From Aeromonas fluvialis (GTDB lineage: Bacteria > Pseudomonadota > Gammaproteobacteria > Enterobacterales > Aeromonadaceae): a DNA stretch of 44,619 bases. The DNA lies in NCBI RefSeq assembly GCF_000819885.1, contig NZ_CDBO01000032.1:1-44619 (forward strand), read 5' to 3'. The first letter of the stretch is position 1, and each line of letters begins with the position of its first letter. Position numbers and translations under genes: made by a program. Below the pieces are notes generated by a model. That model was not told where the DNA came from. It was given only the letters and a program-made list of their open reading frames with translations, and did no database searches. This document shows, piece after piece, positions 24,276 through 32,766 of this stretch.

Positions 24276-25157
24276 TCACGTTCCGTCGCAGGCTGGCAAA
24301 TCTGTTTCAGATCTGCCGCTATTGCTTTGTAGCCCTTCCAAGAATACAAACCTAATCCCGCATAACATGTCATGACCTGACGAGTGTCCATAATCCGCAA
24401 TATTCTTAATTGCGCTGACAACATCTTGTTCTCGGGCTGTCACCAGTTGCAGTAAACGCTCGCCATAATGGCCTGCTCCCCCCATTTTAAGCATCACGGC
24501 ACTGATCTCCGTTGTACGTGTTAGCAGAGGTAACAAAGCAGCAACAAACTCATCCCTACCTTGAAATGCCGTCCACTCCAAAGCAAACAGAATCCCAAGC
24601 AGAAAGTCATCACCGGAGGGCGTCAGGCCATGCCCATAACCAAGCAAAGGGGTGAGAACAGGACCCAGCTCCACCTTGGCGCCACCCAACCAATTTTGCA
24701 GGGCAGTTAATGGTGGAAGCAGATAGTCATGATCTTCCCCATGCCATTGGGACCAGAAACCACCAACAGGAGGGGCAAATGACAAGAAGTGATCCAGCGA
24801 AGGTAACAGACATGGCATGAGCCCCTGACCCGCGGTGAGGCGGGTCGACTGCCACTGACAATCGACAAGCCGGATCTTACTGTGAGGCCCCACCAGTGTA
24901 TTCTCGTGCCAAAGCCAGCGACTCCCCGGTTGCATGTCATCAGGTAAAAATTCTGTCGCCAGTTCCATCCCAGCAGGGGGCAAAGCCACGCCATTTATCA
25001 CCAAAGTCAGCCATTCACCTTGGTCCGATATAAAATTGCAACTGCGCTGAAAACGAGAGTGAACGATCAACACATCCTGCTTTGGCATCGCCAGGACACG
25101 CTGGCAACCACGAATGACCGAGAGAGAACGCTGTGACAAAAGGGGCTCCTTGAACAT
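24276..25157 (-). CDS. DUF2877 protein (YlbF/AllH-YahE-like)
   Basis: The 293-aa product has the two DUF2877 signatures: GLTPSGDDFLLGILFAL near residue 182 and GHSSGHDMLCGI near 262. In E. coli the relatives are YahE and YlbF (AllH), each encoded with FdrA-type and DUF1116 proteins that together form a carbamoyltransferase acting on oxalurate in the allantoin pathway. Here it is divergent from the FdrA operon rather than inside it, sharing a 234-base upstream region. The ATG at 25157 has no strong ribosome site; M24 is an alternative. A subunit role in the neighbouring system is inferred. Confidence 0.82.
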   Translation of the reverse strand: MFKEPLLSQRSLSVIRGCQRVLAMPKQDVLIVHSRFQRSCNFISDQGEWLTLVINGVALPPAGMELATEFLPDDMQPGSRWLWHENTLVGPHSKIRLVDCQWQSTRLTAGQGLMPCLLPSLDHFLSFAPPVGGFWSQWHGEDHDYLLPPLTALQNWLGGAKVELGPVLTPLLGYGHGLTPSGDDFLLGILFALEWTAFQGRDEFVAALLPLLTRTTEISAVMLKMGGAGHYGERLLQLVTAREQDVVSAIKNIADYGHSSGHDMLCGIRFVFLEGLQSNSGRSETDLPACDGT

Positions 25158-25391
25158 GGATTGGCGAGAGGGATCACAGTTCTATGATTTGCTTCACTGC
25201 CTGCTGAACCGACGGTCATGTGATACCGATATGGTGCAATCCCAGCAATGACCGGACTCTTAGCCATTGTGCCATCAGCATGAATTACCATCCCTCAAAT
25301 CTTTTGTCGGTTGTGCTCAATTTCTTTCTGCGCACCCCCTCAACGCCCTCCATAGACTGGCCATGAATCATCCACCTCGTAGGAGAACACA
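25158..25391. promoter_or_regulatory. Divergent upstream region, DUF2877 gene and hydrolase operon
   Basis: The 234 bases between divergent starts must hold both promoters. I could not assign -10/-35 boxes or a LysR-type operator with confidence. AGGAG (25381-25385) serves the hydrolase start. Confidence 0.4.
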
Positions 25392-26057
25392 ATGAACAAG
25401 CGTATCAGTGCACAGCCCTTCGATTTCACCTTCGACCCGGCAACCACCGCCCTCATCGTGATCGACATGCAGCGTGATTTCGTCGAACCGAATGGATTTG
25501 GTCATGCCCTCGGTAACGATGTTTCCCTCGTGCGCCGGGCCATCGAACCCTGCCGCAAGGTGCTGGATGCGGCTCGAGCCAAAGGCATGTTGGTCATTCA
25601 TACACGTGAAGGTCATCGTCCGGATCTGACCGACTGTCTGCCGGCCAAGCTGGTCCGCGGCGGCAAGCGTTTCATCGGGGAGCAAGGCGCCATGGGCCGG
25701 ATCCTGGTGCAAGGTGAAGCGGGCCACGACATCATCCCCGAGCTCTATCCCATCGCTGGCGAACCGGTGATCGACAAGCCTGGCAAGGGGGCTTTTTACT
25801 CCACCGACCTGCACCTGATCTTGCAAGCCCGCGGCATTCGCTCCCTCATCATCTGCGGCGTTACCACCGAGGTCTGCGTGCAGACCACCGCTCGTGAAGC
25901 CAACGACCGTGGCTATGAGTTGGTGATCCCGGCAGATTGTTGCGCGTCCTACTTCCCCGAATTCCACCGGGTCACCCTCGAGATGATCCAGGCCCAGGGC
26001 GCTATTGTCGGCTGGGTTAGCGACGCCGAACAACTGGTCGCAGCCCTAAAAGACTGA
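25392..26057 (+). CDS. Cysteine hydrolase, isochorismatase superfamily (biuret/ureidoacrylate amidohydrolase-like)
   Basis: The 221-aa product has the superfamily triad: D25 in VIDMQRDF, K129 in IDKPGKGAFYSTD and C162 in GVTTEVCVQTT with a preceding cis-peptide-like region. The KPGKGAFYSTDL block is like biuret and ureidoacrylate amidohydrolases, which cut carbamoyl amide bonds. Exact substrate is not readable from sequence. It is the first gene of the plus-strand operon with FdrA, DUF1116 and carbamate kinase, so a ureide substrate is likely. AGGAG precedes the ATG. A stem-loop (26061-26079) follows. Confidence 0.88.
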   Translation: MNKRISAQPFDFTFDPATTALIVIDMQRDFVEPNGFGHALGNDVSLVRRAIEPCRKVLDAARAKGMLVIHTREGHRPDLTDCLPAKLVRGGKRFIGEQGAMGRILVQGEAGHDIIPELYPIAGEPVIDKPGKGAFYSTDLHLILQARGIRSLIICGVTTEVCVQTTAREANDRGYELVIPADCCASYFPEFHRVTLEMIQAQGAIVGWVSDAEQLVAALKD

Positions 26058-26060
26058 TTC

Positions 26061-26079
26061 TTGGGGCCTATCGCCCCAA
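26061..26079 (+). other. Intercistronic stem-loop after the hydrolase gene
   Basis: TTGGGGC (26061-26067) and GCCCCAA (26073-26079) form a 7-bp stem with a 5-nt loop and no T-tract. It may tune expression of the following genes or stabilise the first cistron. Confidence 0.55.
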
Positions 26080-31799: not shown

Positions 31800-31813
31800 T
31801 TATCCGTATAACC

Positions 31814-31840
31814 AAAAGGCCGCAGATGCGGCCTTTTTTA
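31814..31840 (+). terminator. Terminator after the permease gene
   Basis: AAAAGGCCGCA (31814-31824) pairs with TGCGGCCTTTT, followed by more T residues. It lies between convergent genes and can serve both the permease operon and the LysR gene. Confidence 0.92.
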
Positions 31841-31854
31841 CGGACAAACCGGCG

Positions 31855-32766
31855 CTAGCCGAGTGCCCCCAGCAACCCTTGTTGTAAGGCTGGATCACGC
31901 AGTTGCTGCAACCACCAGCTAAAACAGGGACGCGTATGCTGGCGCTGCCAGGCCAGAAACAGTGGGGTCGGCTGTTTCGGCGACTCTATTGTCATCACCT
32001 GAAGACGACCGTCGTCAATCAGTGGCTGGCCAAAGTGACGCGGCACAAAACCGATACCGACCCCTTCAGCCTGAAGCGAGAGCTTGCTGTGAAAATCGGG
32101 TACTTGTAGCGCCTTCTGACCACGCAACAACCAAGCTTCCTTGGGCTTGAGCTGTACAGAGGTATCTCGAATGCAAATCGCCGGATAACGTCGCAGGGCG
32201 CGTTCAGTAAGGGGCTGGGGTAACTTGGCTACCGGATGGTTCGGGCTTACGGCAAAGACCCAGTCCACCATTCCCATCGGTTCTGCACCTATTTCACTGT
32301 TGGCAATCACCTGGTTGGGCGCACCTACAGCAATATCGGCACGTTTGCCCAACAGGGCATCCCAAACCCCATCGTGAACATCAATGGCGAGCTGAATTTC
32401 AGTTTGGGGGAAAAGCCGCTCGCATTCATGTAGCAAAGGGGTGAGAGGCGCCAGCGAAAGGATGTTGTTAAAAGAGAGGCGGATCGAGGGCTCCACTCCC
32501 ATGGCAATCAGGCGAGTCGAGTCCTCCAGACTGTTAAGCTCTCCCAAGATCAGCTCACCGCGCTTGATAAAGTGGTAGCCAGCCTCGGTAAGCACCAGCT
32601 GCTTTCCCTGACGCTCGAACAGACTGACACCGAGAGAGTCTTCAAGTTTGTGAAGAGTGTAACTGAGCGCGCTCGGTACCTTGTGCAACTCTTGGGAGGC
32701 GGCAGCAAAACTGCCACAGCGGGCAATGACAATAACAACTTTGATCGCGTCAGCGGTGATAACCAT
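31855..32766 (-). CDS. LysR-family transcriptional regulator
   Basis: The 303-aa product has the usual N-terminal helix-turn-helix, VIVIARCGSFAAASQELHKV then PSALSYTLHKLEDSLG and LFERQGKQLVLTEAG, followed by a two-lobed effector domain. It resembles the YhaJ-type branch. The ATG at 32766 has GGAG upstream; an earlier TTG is less likely. It is convergent with the permease operon, a less common arrangement, but its position suggests control of the carbamoyl-transfer cluster. No T-N11-A operator was assigned. Confidence 0.92.
   Translation of the reverse strand: MVITADAIKVVIVIARCGSFAAASQELHKVPSALSYTLHKLEDSLGVSLFERQGKQLVLTEAGYHFIKRGELILGELNSLEDSTRLIAMGVEPSIRLSFNNILSLAPLTPLLHECERLFPQTEIQLAIDVHDGVWDALLGKRADIAVGAPNQVIANSEIGAEPMGMVDWVFAVSPNHPVAKLPQPLTERALRRYPAICIRDTSVQLKPKEAWLLRGQKALQVPDFHSKLSLQAEGVGIGFVPRHFGQPLIDDGRLQVMTIESPKQPTPLFLAWQRQHTRPCFSWWLQQLRDPALQQGLLGALG

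What the first reader, a model, noticed from the sequence alone, without database searches (positions are those of the whole stretch)
24276..32766. Candidate undescribed ATP-yielding ureide pathway: hydrolase, FdrA/DUF1116, carbamate kinase, free allophanate-hydrolase C-domain and NCS1 permease
Seen: a tight plus-strand set encoding a cysteine hydrolase (D25, K129, C162), an FdrA/YahF protein, a DUF1116 protein, carbamate kinase, a lone allophanate hydrolase C-terminal domain and a CodB-like permease, with a divergent DUF2877 gene and a LysR gene. Known: FdrA, DUF1116 and DUF2877 proteins form the oxalurate carbamoyltransferase of allantoin catabolism, and carbamate kinase then makes ATP. No allantoinase, allantoate amidohydrolase or ureidoglycolate dehydrogenase is here, so allantoin is unlikely to be the input. 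Inference: the permease imports a biuret-, ureide- or nucleobase-like compound, the hydrolase deaminates it, and the carbamoyltransferase phosphorolyses the product (for example allophanate or a similar N-carbamoyl acid) to carbamoyl phosphate, so the cell gains ATP instead of spending it.
Basis: partly seen in the sequence, partly recalled or inferred. Interest (0 to 1): 0.78.

Follow-up and report, generated by a model that had tools for sequence, protein, structure and literature searches.

The report
ATP-yielding triuret breakdown gene cluster
This Aeromonas gene cluster, a relative of which sits in 1543 of 5426 complete E. coli genomes searched, pairs a hydrolase carrying the active-site residues of a known triuret-cutting enzyme with the protein families of a carbamoyl-phosphate-forming enzyme and a carbamate kinase, and so likely lets bacteria use triuret (a uric-acid oxidation product) as nitrogen while gaining ATP.

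Summary
The eight genes are real and tightly ordered. The cysteine hydrolase is not just "biuret-like": its best solved relative is triuret hydrolase TrtA (60% identity; BiuH 51%, RutB 33%), and it has TrtA's residue at all 13 positions checked, including five that separate TrtA from BiuH. Those five hold in 26 of 26 full-length hydrolases compared from such clusters (Aeromonas, Enterobacterales, Photobacterium, Mycobacterium and others). Their AllG and AllF partners group apart from the K-12 allantoin and Yah kinds. Of 18 such genomes tested, 9, this one included, have neither biuret hydrolase nor AH_C-bearing allophanate hydrolase; this one also lacks urease and AllD. The free AH_C domain is fused to carbamate kinase in mycobacteria and others and to the hydrolase in two proteins, so it belongs to the pathway. 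Best reading: the hydrolase makes carboxybiuret; the AllFGH-type enzyme phosphorolyses it, perhaps also allophanate, to carbamoyl phosphate; carbamate kinase makes ATP. Triuret and the phosphorolysis are inferred, not assayed. Published notices read the E. coli copy as Rut-like pyrimidine breakdown, and AllFGHK beside trtA/biuH as separate oxalurate breakdown. New variant of a known kind.

The parts
24276..25157 (-). AllH-type subunit (DUF2877, PF11392), divergently transcribed
   Evidence: PF11392 75.7 bits over cut-off 25. In E. coli UTI89 the corresponding gene is co-directional in the cluster.
25392..26057 (+). TrtA-type (triuret hydrolase-type) cysteine hydrolase of the isochorismatase-like family
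   Evidence: Best PDB match TrtA 6xix 279.9 bits vs BiuH 6xjm 230.8; all 13 checked positions as in TrtA; NCBIfam BiuH model 263.6 of 370 bits and RutB model 114.9 of 377.95 bits, both under cut-off.
26105..27700 (+). AllF/FdrA-type subunit of the carbamoyltransferase (start may be the ATG at 26153)
   Evidence: NF004760 FdrA 471 bits over cut-off 433; 27 TrtA-associated AllF rows on one side of a branch, support 94/93, just under the tool's mark for a firm branch.
27697..29121 (+). AllG-type subunit (DUF1116, PF06545)
   Evidence: PF06545 326 bits; 27 TrtA-associated AllG rows on one side of a branch, support 98/94; only AllG in the genome.
29124..30080 (+). carbamate kinase
   Evidence: NF009007 362.4 bits over cut-off 266; TIGR00746 341 bits, under its cut-off 358.25.
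30144..30539 (+). free allophanate-hydrolase C-terminal-type domain (AH_C), relative of E. coli C4763
   Evidence: PF21986 136 bits; PDB 5c5z 168 bits (the name C4763 for this entry is recalled); only AH_C in the genome; fused to carbamate kinase or to the hydrolase in relatives.
30555..31799 (+). CodB-like NCS1 permease, presumed uptake of the ureide
   Evidence: PF02133 53.3 bits; NCBIfam cytosine permease 138 of 326 bits, under cut-off.
31855..32775 (-). LysR-type regulator (PunR/AllS-like), presumed regulator of the cluster
   Evidence: PRK11074 PunR 270 of 345 bits, AllS 229 of 372 bits, both under cut-off; a LysR gene also ends the UTI89 cluster.

Best explanation
The cluster encodes a TrtA-type hydrolase, the three families of an AllFGH-type carbamoyltransferase, a carbamate kinase, a free AH_C protein and an NCS1 permease, and it is predicted to take up triuret, hydrolyse it to carboxybiuret, and likely split that with phosphate to carbamoyl phosphate, from which carbamate kinase would make ATP. 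Steps: (1) the permease would import triuret (inferred). (2) The hydrolase would release one ammonia and carboxybiuret, the reaction shown for Herbaspirillum TrtA (inferred here from residues). (3) The AllF-AllG-AllH-type enzyme would transfer the terminal carbamoyl group of carboxybiuret to phosphate, leaving allophanate, and probably act again on allophanate, leaving carbamate; this copies the known reaction oxalurate + phosphate = oxamate + carbamoyl phosphate (inferred). (4) Carbamate kinase would make up to two ATP per triuret. (5) AH_C would remove N-carboxylate groups (most likely carbamate) and so pull the chain forward; its exact substrate is the weakest point. Sum if complete: triuret gives 4 ammonia, 3 carbon dioxide and up to 2 ATP.
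For: Hydrolase residues and identity. TrtA reaction and specificity from PMC7948467. In 26 of 26 full-length cluster hydrolases compared, F35, N41, E160, Y187 and I205 (TrtA numbering) are TrtA-type; 25 of 26 also keep E72 and Q202. TrtA-associated AllG and AllF fall on one side of a branch, away from the 17 rows without TrtA, K-12 AllFG and YahFG among them. In a sample of 397 Pseudomonadota genomes, this one included, 18 had AllG (17 over cut-off); of the 20 other AllG loci read, 5 have the TrtA-type front enzyme. AH_C-carbamate kinase fusions and AH_C-hydrolase fusions in both orders tie AH_C to the pathway. E. coli AllFGH and its reaction: PMC11326118. In E. coli the hydrolase gene matches in 1547 of 5426 genomes and the rest of the cluster also in 1547 (1544 and 1543 with at least 80% of the query).
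Against: No activity is shown for any protein of these clusters. Carboxybiuret as donor for an AllFGH-type enzyme has no precedent that I found. If AH_C decarboxylated carboxybiuret it would give biuret, for which 15 of 18 genomes have no BiuH; so its role is unsettled. The AtzF test used the AH_C domain, so an allophanate-cutting amidase without AH_C would have been missed. AllH is absent from three mycobacterial genomes and from G245, although E. coli OXTCase needs all three genes. Six of 18 genomes have full-length AtzF without BiuH and two have BiuH with AtzF (in one, G241, an AtzF frame of only 467 aa), and comammox bacteria are reported with trtA, biuH, atzF and allFGHK together (PMC12625717), where phosphorolysis would be redundant. 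One cluster hydrolase (L085) has K and L at E72 and Q202. Canonical TrtAs nest among the cluster hydrolases with moderate support, so an older, different substrate is possible. Carbamate kinase is not seen at the locus in L026 and L036. In the passages seen, E. coli OXTCase was assayed in the synthesis direction.
Confidence: 0.6

Rival explanations
1. Triuret route without double phosphorolysis: TrtA makes carboxybiuret, AH_C decarboxylates it to biuret or the carbamoyltransferase splits it once, and the rest (allophanate or urea) leaves the cell or goes to AtzF where present.
For: AH_C fused to the hydrolase in two proteins; full-length AtzF in 7 of 18 cluster genomes and a 467-aa AtzF frame in an eighth; carboxybiuret decarboxylates by itself with a half-life of about 20 min.
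Against: Nine genomes lack BiuH and AH_C-bearing AtzF and this one lacks urease, so half or more of the nitrogen would be lost; AH_C is fused to carbamate kinase far more often in the listing seen (118 of 120 listed of 340 matched, a sample biased by the query).
Confidence: 0.2
2. The hydrolase makes oxalurate from oxaluramide or a similar oxidation product, and the AllFGH-type enzyme acts on oxalurate as in E. coli K-12.
For: Oxalurate is the donor known for AllFGH; TrtA shows 0.3% activity on formylurea, so N-acyl ureas fit somewhat.
Against: Residues are those of a triuret-specific enzyme; the AllF and AllG clade is separate from the allantoin-type one; no role for AH_C.
Confidence: 0.1
3. 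Rut-like pyrimidine breakdown, as proposed for the E. coli copy (PMC12928451, GR 29): permease for pyrimidines, hydrolase as RutB.
For: CodB-like permease; isochorismatase fold shared with RutB.
Against: 33% identity to RutB against 60% to TrtA; RutB differs from TrtA at 10 of the 13 positions, one of them a gap; RutB model 114.9 of 377.95 bits; no RutA among the cluster genes (the genome was not searched for RutA).
Confidence: 0.03
4. Last steps of allantoin breakdown (plain oxalurate carbamoyltransferase) with unlinked upstream genes.
For: Same three subunit families as AllFGH.
Against: No AllD in the genome, no allantoinase over cut-off, a different clade, a TrtA-type hydrolase at every locus of that clade.
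Confidence: 0.04
5. Urea breakdown helper, as C4763 is described (cited in PMC7558591).
For: AH_C homology to allophanate hydrolase.
Against: No amidase domain and no urea carboxylase among the cluster genes; free AH_C lies in a ureide-carbamoyl phosphate cluster. The genome was not searched for urea carboxylase.
Confidence: 0.03

Closest known systems
TrtA-BiuH-AtzF triuret/biuret operon (Herbaspirillum sp. BH-1, Rhizobium leguminosarum; PMC7948467)
   Same: TrtA-type hydrolase with the same catalytic, contact and second-shell residues; nitrogen scavenging from triuret in prospect.
   Different: No BiuH, no AtzF amidase and no BMP-type ABC transporter in the window cluster; instead AllF-AllG-AllH, carbamate kinase, free AH_C and NCS1 permease.
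AllFGHK oxamate carbamoyltransferase module of E. coli K-12 (PMC11326118)
   Same: Same three subunit families and a carbamate kinase; 75 AllG and 79 AllF window positions at least 97% constant in each of the TrtA-type (27 rows), K-12-type (4) and Yah-type (7 or 8) sets compared.
   Different: Separate clades; no allantoin genes; TrtA-type front enzyme and AH_C added.
E. coli K-12 yahEFGIJ
   Same: AllH-, AllF-, AllG- and carbamate kinase-type genes.
   Different: Front enzyme is the amidohydrolase YahJ, no AH_C annotated there; separate clade. Function unknown to me.
ExPEC island GR 29 / ColV plasmid cluster in E. coli (UTI89, APEC; PMC12928451)
   Same: Same eight gene families, nearly the same order.
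   Different: AllH is co-directional and inside the operon; published reading is Rut-like pyrimidine breakdown.
allFGHK beside trtA/biuH in comammox Nitrospira and ammonia-oxidising archaea (PMC12625717)
   Same: Co-location of the same enzyme kinds, sometimes with codB.
   Different: biuH, and in comammox atzF, also present; read there as two pathways (triuret/biuret and oxalurate), not one.
AtzF allophanate hydrolase
   Same: AH_C domain.
   Different: Amidase domain missing.

Membership tests
TrtA triuret hydrolase | Catalytic triad D24, K129, C162 | tested here: met
   D25, K129, C162
TrtA triuret hydrolase | Substrate contacts E72, K132, Q202 | tested here: met
   E73, K132, Q202 (roles)
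TrtA triuret hydrolase | Second-shell residues that separate TrtA from BiuH (F35, N41, E160, Y187, I205) | tested here: met
   F36, N42, E160, Y187, I205; 26 of 26 full-length cluster hydrolases compared
TrtA triuret hydrolase | Activity on triuret, almost none on biuret | not testable with these tools
   needs purified enzyme
TrtA triuret hydrolase | Same operon as biuH and atzF (usual context, not defining) | tested here: not met
   neither gene in the cluster; no BiuH and no AH_C-bearing AtzF in the genome
BiuH biuret hydrolase | NCBIfam NF050097 over curated cut-off | tested here: not met
   263.6 of 370 bits
BiuH biuret hydrolase | Y/Y/D/T/V at the five discriminating positions | tested here: not met
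   F/N/E/Y/I
AllFGH oxamate carbamoyltransferase | All three subunit families present | tested here: met
   PF11392, PF06545 and NF004760 over cut-offs
AllFGH oxamate carbamoyltransferase | Same clade as E. coli K-12 AllF and AllG | tested here: not met
   AllG split 98/94, AllF 94/93
AllFGH oxamate carbamoyltransferase | Oxalurate-producing AllD and other allantoin genes | tested here: not met
   no AllD match, no allantoinase over cut-off; AllC not searched
AllFGH oxamate carbamoyltransferase | Oxalurate/oxamate activity | not testable with these tools
   needs purified complex
AtzF allophanate hydrolase | Amidase domain joined to AH_C | tested here: not met
   131-aa AH_C alone
RutB ureidoacrylate amidohydrolase | TIGR03614 over curated cut-off | tested here: not met
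   114.9 of 377.95 bits; 33% identity
Carbamate kinase | Curated model over cut-off | tested here: met
   NF009007 362.4 bits, cut-off 266; the equivalog TIGR00746 is just under, 341 of 358.25

The most novel reading that the evidence does not exclude
AllFGH-family enzymes are a general class of ureide phosphorylases whose substrate is set by the hydrolase they travel with. The TrtA-linked clade strips triuret stepwise by phosphate (carboxybiuret to allophanate to carbamate), giving two carbamoyl phosphate and two ATP per triuret, with AH_C as a carbamate-removing partner of carbamate kinase. This would be a fermentation-like way of living on a uric-acid oxidation product, carried by extraintestinal and avian E. 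coli, Aeromonas and mycobacteria.
Probability: 0.38. Interest if true: 0.82.

Novelty: new variant of a known kind. Interest (0 to 1): 0.68.

Why it matters
Triuret is described as a urea-fertilizer impurity, a product of uric acid oxidation and a compound found in human urine (PMC7948467), and the route described there is hydrolytic, with a decarboxylation. If this cluster works as proposed, bacteria turn the same compound into ATP by phosphorolysis, a catabolic use of carbamoyl phosphate beyond those recalled for arginine, agmatine, allantoin and purine breakdown. It would assign a function to a cluster held nearly whole in 1543 of 5426 complete E. coli genomes, within an island reported as ExPEC/B2-linked (PMC12928451), to the solved E. 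coli AH_C protein (5c5z), and to the carbamate kinase-AH_C fusions of mycobacteria. It also gives a direct test for what the free AH_C domain does.

Tried and rejected
Biuret as main input: rejected on residues and scores. Rut pathway: rejected. Allantoin/oxalurate: disfavoured. A fusion of AH_C to AllG (P0096): dropped, because past the middle of AllG the reading goes out of frame before a fresh AH_C start, so I take it for a frame-shift join, not a fusion. AllG tree: its 'other' group was inflated by short duplicate loci (L049-L069), so I rebuilt it without these and without L086-L090; the Chloroflexota row L033 was unresolved, it falls with the TrtA-type rows. L077 was further left out of the position comparison. 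Rows left out of the hydrolase table: L014, L015 and L091 (copies of L020, L021 and the window), L028 (contig cuts the gene), and P0092 and the L098 hydrolase, which came later. Papers that might fix the AH_C chemistry and the decarboxylase TrtB (Kim 2015, Fan 2013, Aukema 2020; identities partly recalled) are not held, so the role of AH_C and any equivalence with TrtB stay open. The 525-542-aa frame that stands in for CodB in L016, L033, L036 and L076 has no Pfam match. No structure prediction was run: the hydrolase and AH_C have close solved relatives, and single-chain models would not show the AllFGH pocket.
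Full report
1. The observation. The window belongs to a genome of 3.9 Mb in 76 contigs. Same-genus genome G022 carries the cluster on a contig of the same length as the Aeromonas diversa contig found by the FdrA scan, so the genus is Aeromonas. 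The AllF and AllG frames overlap by four bases, and AllG and the kinase are two bases apart, as expected of one transcript.

2. The hydrolase is TrtA-type. Its best PDB match is 6xix (279.9 bits), ahead of the biuret hydrolases 6xjm (230.8) and 6azo (221.0) and of RutB (104.0). PMC7948467 (abstract, passages and named sections read) identifies 6XIX as TrtA of Herbaspirillum sp. [quoted passage not shown] I checked 13 positions: the window protein has the TrtA letter at all 13. At F35, N41, E160, Y187 and I205, where the four BiuH references have Y, Y, D, T and V, all 26 cluster hydrolases in the table have the TrtA letter. A134 is S in 9 of the 26 (L027, L029-L033, L040, L078, L085), a change the paper reports as not deleterious; L085 also lacks E72 and Q202. 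Identity of the window protein: 60% to TrtA, 51% to BiuH, 33% to RutB. In a tree of 34 hydrolases BiuHs stand apart (98/90) and the three canonical TrtAs fall among the cluster hydrolases (outer branches 89/77 and 85/91).

3. The cluster is widespread. A scan of one genome per species with the window FdrA gave 23 loci; 18 have the TrtA-type hydrolase at the locus, mostly next to AllF (AllH lies between in L032; it is about 4 kb from AllF in L033); 5 (L034, L035, L037, L038, L039, all at most 47% identical) do not. The scan favours close kin of the query. An independent sample of 397 Pseudomonadota genomes had AllG in 18, this genome included, 17 over cut-off. Of the 20 other AllG loci, all read, 5 are TrtA-type (L073, L075, L076, L078, L085), 3 K-12 AllFGHK-like (one with allantoin genes in view), 6 YahJ-type, 1 mixed (L077) and 5 very distant. 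With the distant rows and short duplicates left out, the 27 TrtA-associated AllG rows are one side of a branch against 17 others (98/94), and so are the AllF rows (94/93, just short of the tool's mark). In E. coli complete genomes the AllH-to-permease stretch matches in 1547 of 5426 (1543 with at least 80% of the query; 1487 places on chromosomes, 127 on plasmids), and the hydrolase alone in 1547 (1544 with at least 80%); I did not check that these are the same genomes. The window DNA itself has no megablast match in E. coli; the proteins are 74.5% identical for the hydrolase of plasmid copies. In UTI89 the order is hydrolase, AllH, AllF, AllG, kinase, AH_C, permease, LysR. Photobacterium sp. 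DA100 has all eight families. Atlantibacter, Phytobacter and Kosakonia show no CodB-like hit at the locus.

4. The published triuret route looks closed to many of these genomes. In the described operons TrtA, BiuH and AtzF work together (relatives). Of 18 genomes with the cluster (UTI89 could not be searched), 9 have neither AtzF with its AH_C part nor BiuH: the window genome, G022, G024, G430 (Aeromonas), G026, G436 (Succinatimonas), G434, G435 and G437 (mycobacteria). Six have full-length AtzF only, one (G302) BiuH only, and two both, though in G241 the AtzF frame has only 467 aa. An amidase without AH_C was not searched for. The window genome also has no urease alpha, no AllD and no allantoinase over cut-off. 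So whatever the hydrolase makes must, in half of the genomes tested, be used by something else, and the carbamoyltransferase next door is the natural candidate.

5. The carbamoyltransferase. E. [quoted passage not shown] abstract, discussion and passages read). Oxalurate, carboxybiuret and allophanate are all acidic N-carbamoyl compounds with a terminal carbamoyl group (established chemistry). The window AllG and AllF keep 75 and 79 positions that are at least 97% constant in each of the TrtA-type, K-12-type and Yah-type sets, while 42 and 18 positions are fixed in the TrtA-type set and fixed to something else in the K-12-type set (12 and 2 of these are gaps; only 4 K-12-type rows). This fits shared chemistry with a changed substrate; it does not prove it. 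AllH was found at most loci but is absent from the whole genomes G434, G435, G437 and G245.

6. The AH_C protein. It is 131 residues with no amidase domain, and an E. coli relative has a solved structure, 5c5z. It shares with AtzF C-domains the YR, E, WR and other core positions. It is fused to carbamate kinase in L027, L029, L030, L031 and L032 (also L040, where the frame is broken) and in L078 and L085. Of 340 proteins matched by the AH_C part of such a fusion, 120 are listed: 118 carry kinase plus AH_C, one hydrolase plus AH_C (P0092) and one AllG plus AH_C (P0096, which I read as a frame-shift join). A second hydrolase fusion, in the opposite order, is in L076. The query was itself a fusion, so these numbers do not give frequencies. 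The known fusion partner (the AtzF amidase) and the two new ones all release a product with an N-carboxylate (established chemistry, recalled), hence the proposal that AH_C removes such groups, carbamate above all. This is the least certain step. Two of 27 TrtA-type loci show no AH_C (L033; L028, whose contig ends), and the kinase is not seen at L026, L028 and L036.

7. What is in print. PMC12928451 (passages read) lists the E. coli copy as part of GR 29, notes 31.82% identity to RutB, and proposes pyrimidine breakdown; the TrtA residues speak against that. PMC12625717 (passages read) reports allFGHK next to trtA/biuH in comammox and next to biuH in archaea and treats it as a separate oxalurate pathway. 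PMC7558591 (passages read) cites C4763 as a urea-breakdown factor. PMC9800807, PMC3364942, PMC6219798 and PMC5770610 were read in passages only. Full-text searches for triuret with carbamoyl phosphate, biuret with oxamic transcarbamylase, triuret with E. coli and uric acid, triuret hydrolase, carboxybiuret, three of six cluster terms, and oxamate with carbamoyltransferase and fdrA returned no paper whose listing, or whose passages where I opened it, proposes phosphorolysis of triuret products; only open-licence papers are held and most listed papers were not opened, so this is not proof of absence.

8. Verdict. The input and the phosphorolysis are inferences. New variant of a known kind: two known enzyme kinds in a combination that would make an ATP-yielding route.

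Noticed in passing
G000:C27 (L107:4869-11280): The same genome has a YgeW carbamoyltransferase, diaminopropionate ammonia-lyase, YgeY hydrolase, dihydropyrimidinase and second carbamate kinase in a row, which looks like the anaerobic purine/uric-acid type of cluster (recalled).
   Followed up: partly
L008 (pAPEC-O2-ColV): In this plasmid copy the hydrolase, AllH and FdrA frames are interrupted, while L009 and UTI89 show them as single annotated genes; described only.
   Followed up: no
L016:14356-15933, L033:7513-9087, L036:13326-14903, L076:3072-4700: A 525-542-aa protein that looks like a membrane transporter, with no Pfam match, stands in the place of the CodB-like permease.
   Followed up: partly
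G434, G435, G437, G245: No AllH match in these genomes although AllF and AllG are present, so a two-subunit form may work.
   Followed up: partly
G302 (L078, L085, L097, L098): One genome has a BiuH without AH_C-bearing AtzF, two TrtA-AllFGH clusters with kinase-AH_C fusions, and a further TrtA-type gene beside an AllH gene; one of its hydrolases (L085) lacks two contact residues.
   Followed up: partly
window 1720-3811 and 4493-12538: A CRISPR array with over 30 repeats next to frames that look like type I-C cas genes (recalled, no model run); the tRNA-Pro call at 2044-2126 lies inside the array and is probably false.
   Followed up: partly
window 33156-37411: A YagK/YfjJ-type protein and a frame that reads like an integrase (no NCBIfam match at 1e-20) lie just past the cluster, which hints at a mobile element beside it.
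   Followed up: no
window 18102-23582: A likely sialic-acid cluster lies just before the finding: sodium/solute symporter and NanA-like lyase; kinase, epimerase and RpiR regulator by eye only.
   Followed up: no
L043:12656-13009: A small cupin gene sits next to TrtA in a Rhizobium operon that also has cyanuric acid amidohydrolase and may be the published decarboxylase TrtB; not checked.
   Followed up: no
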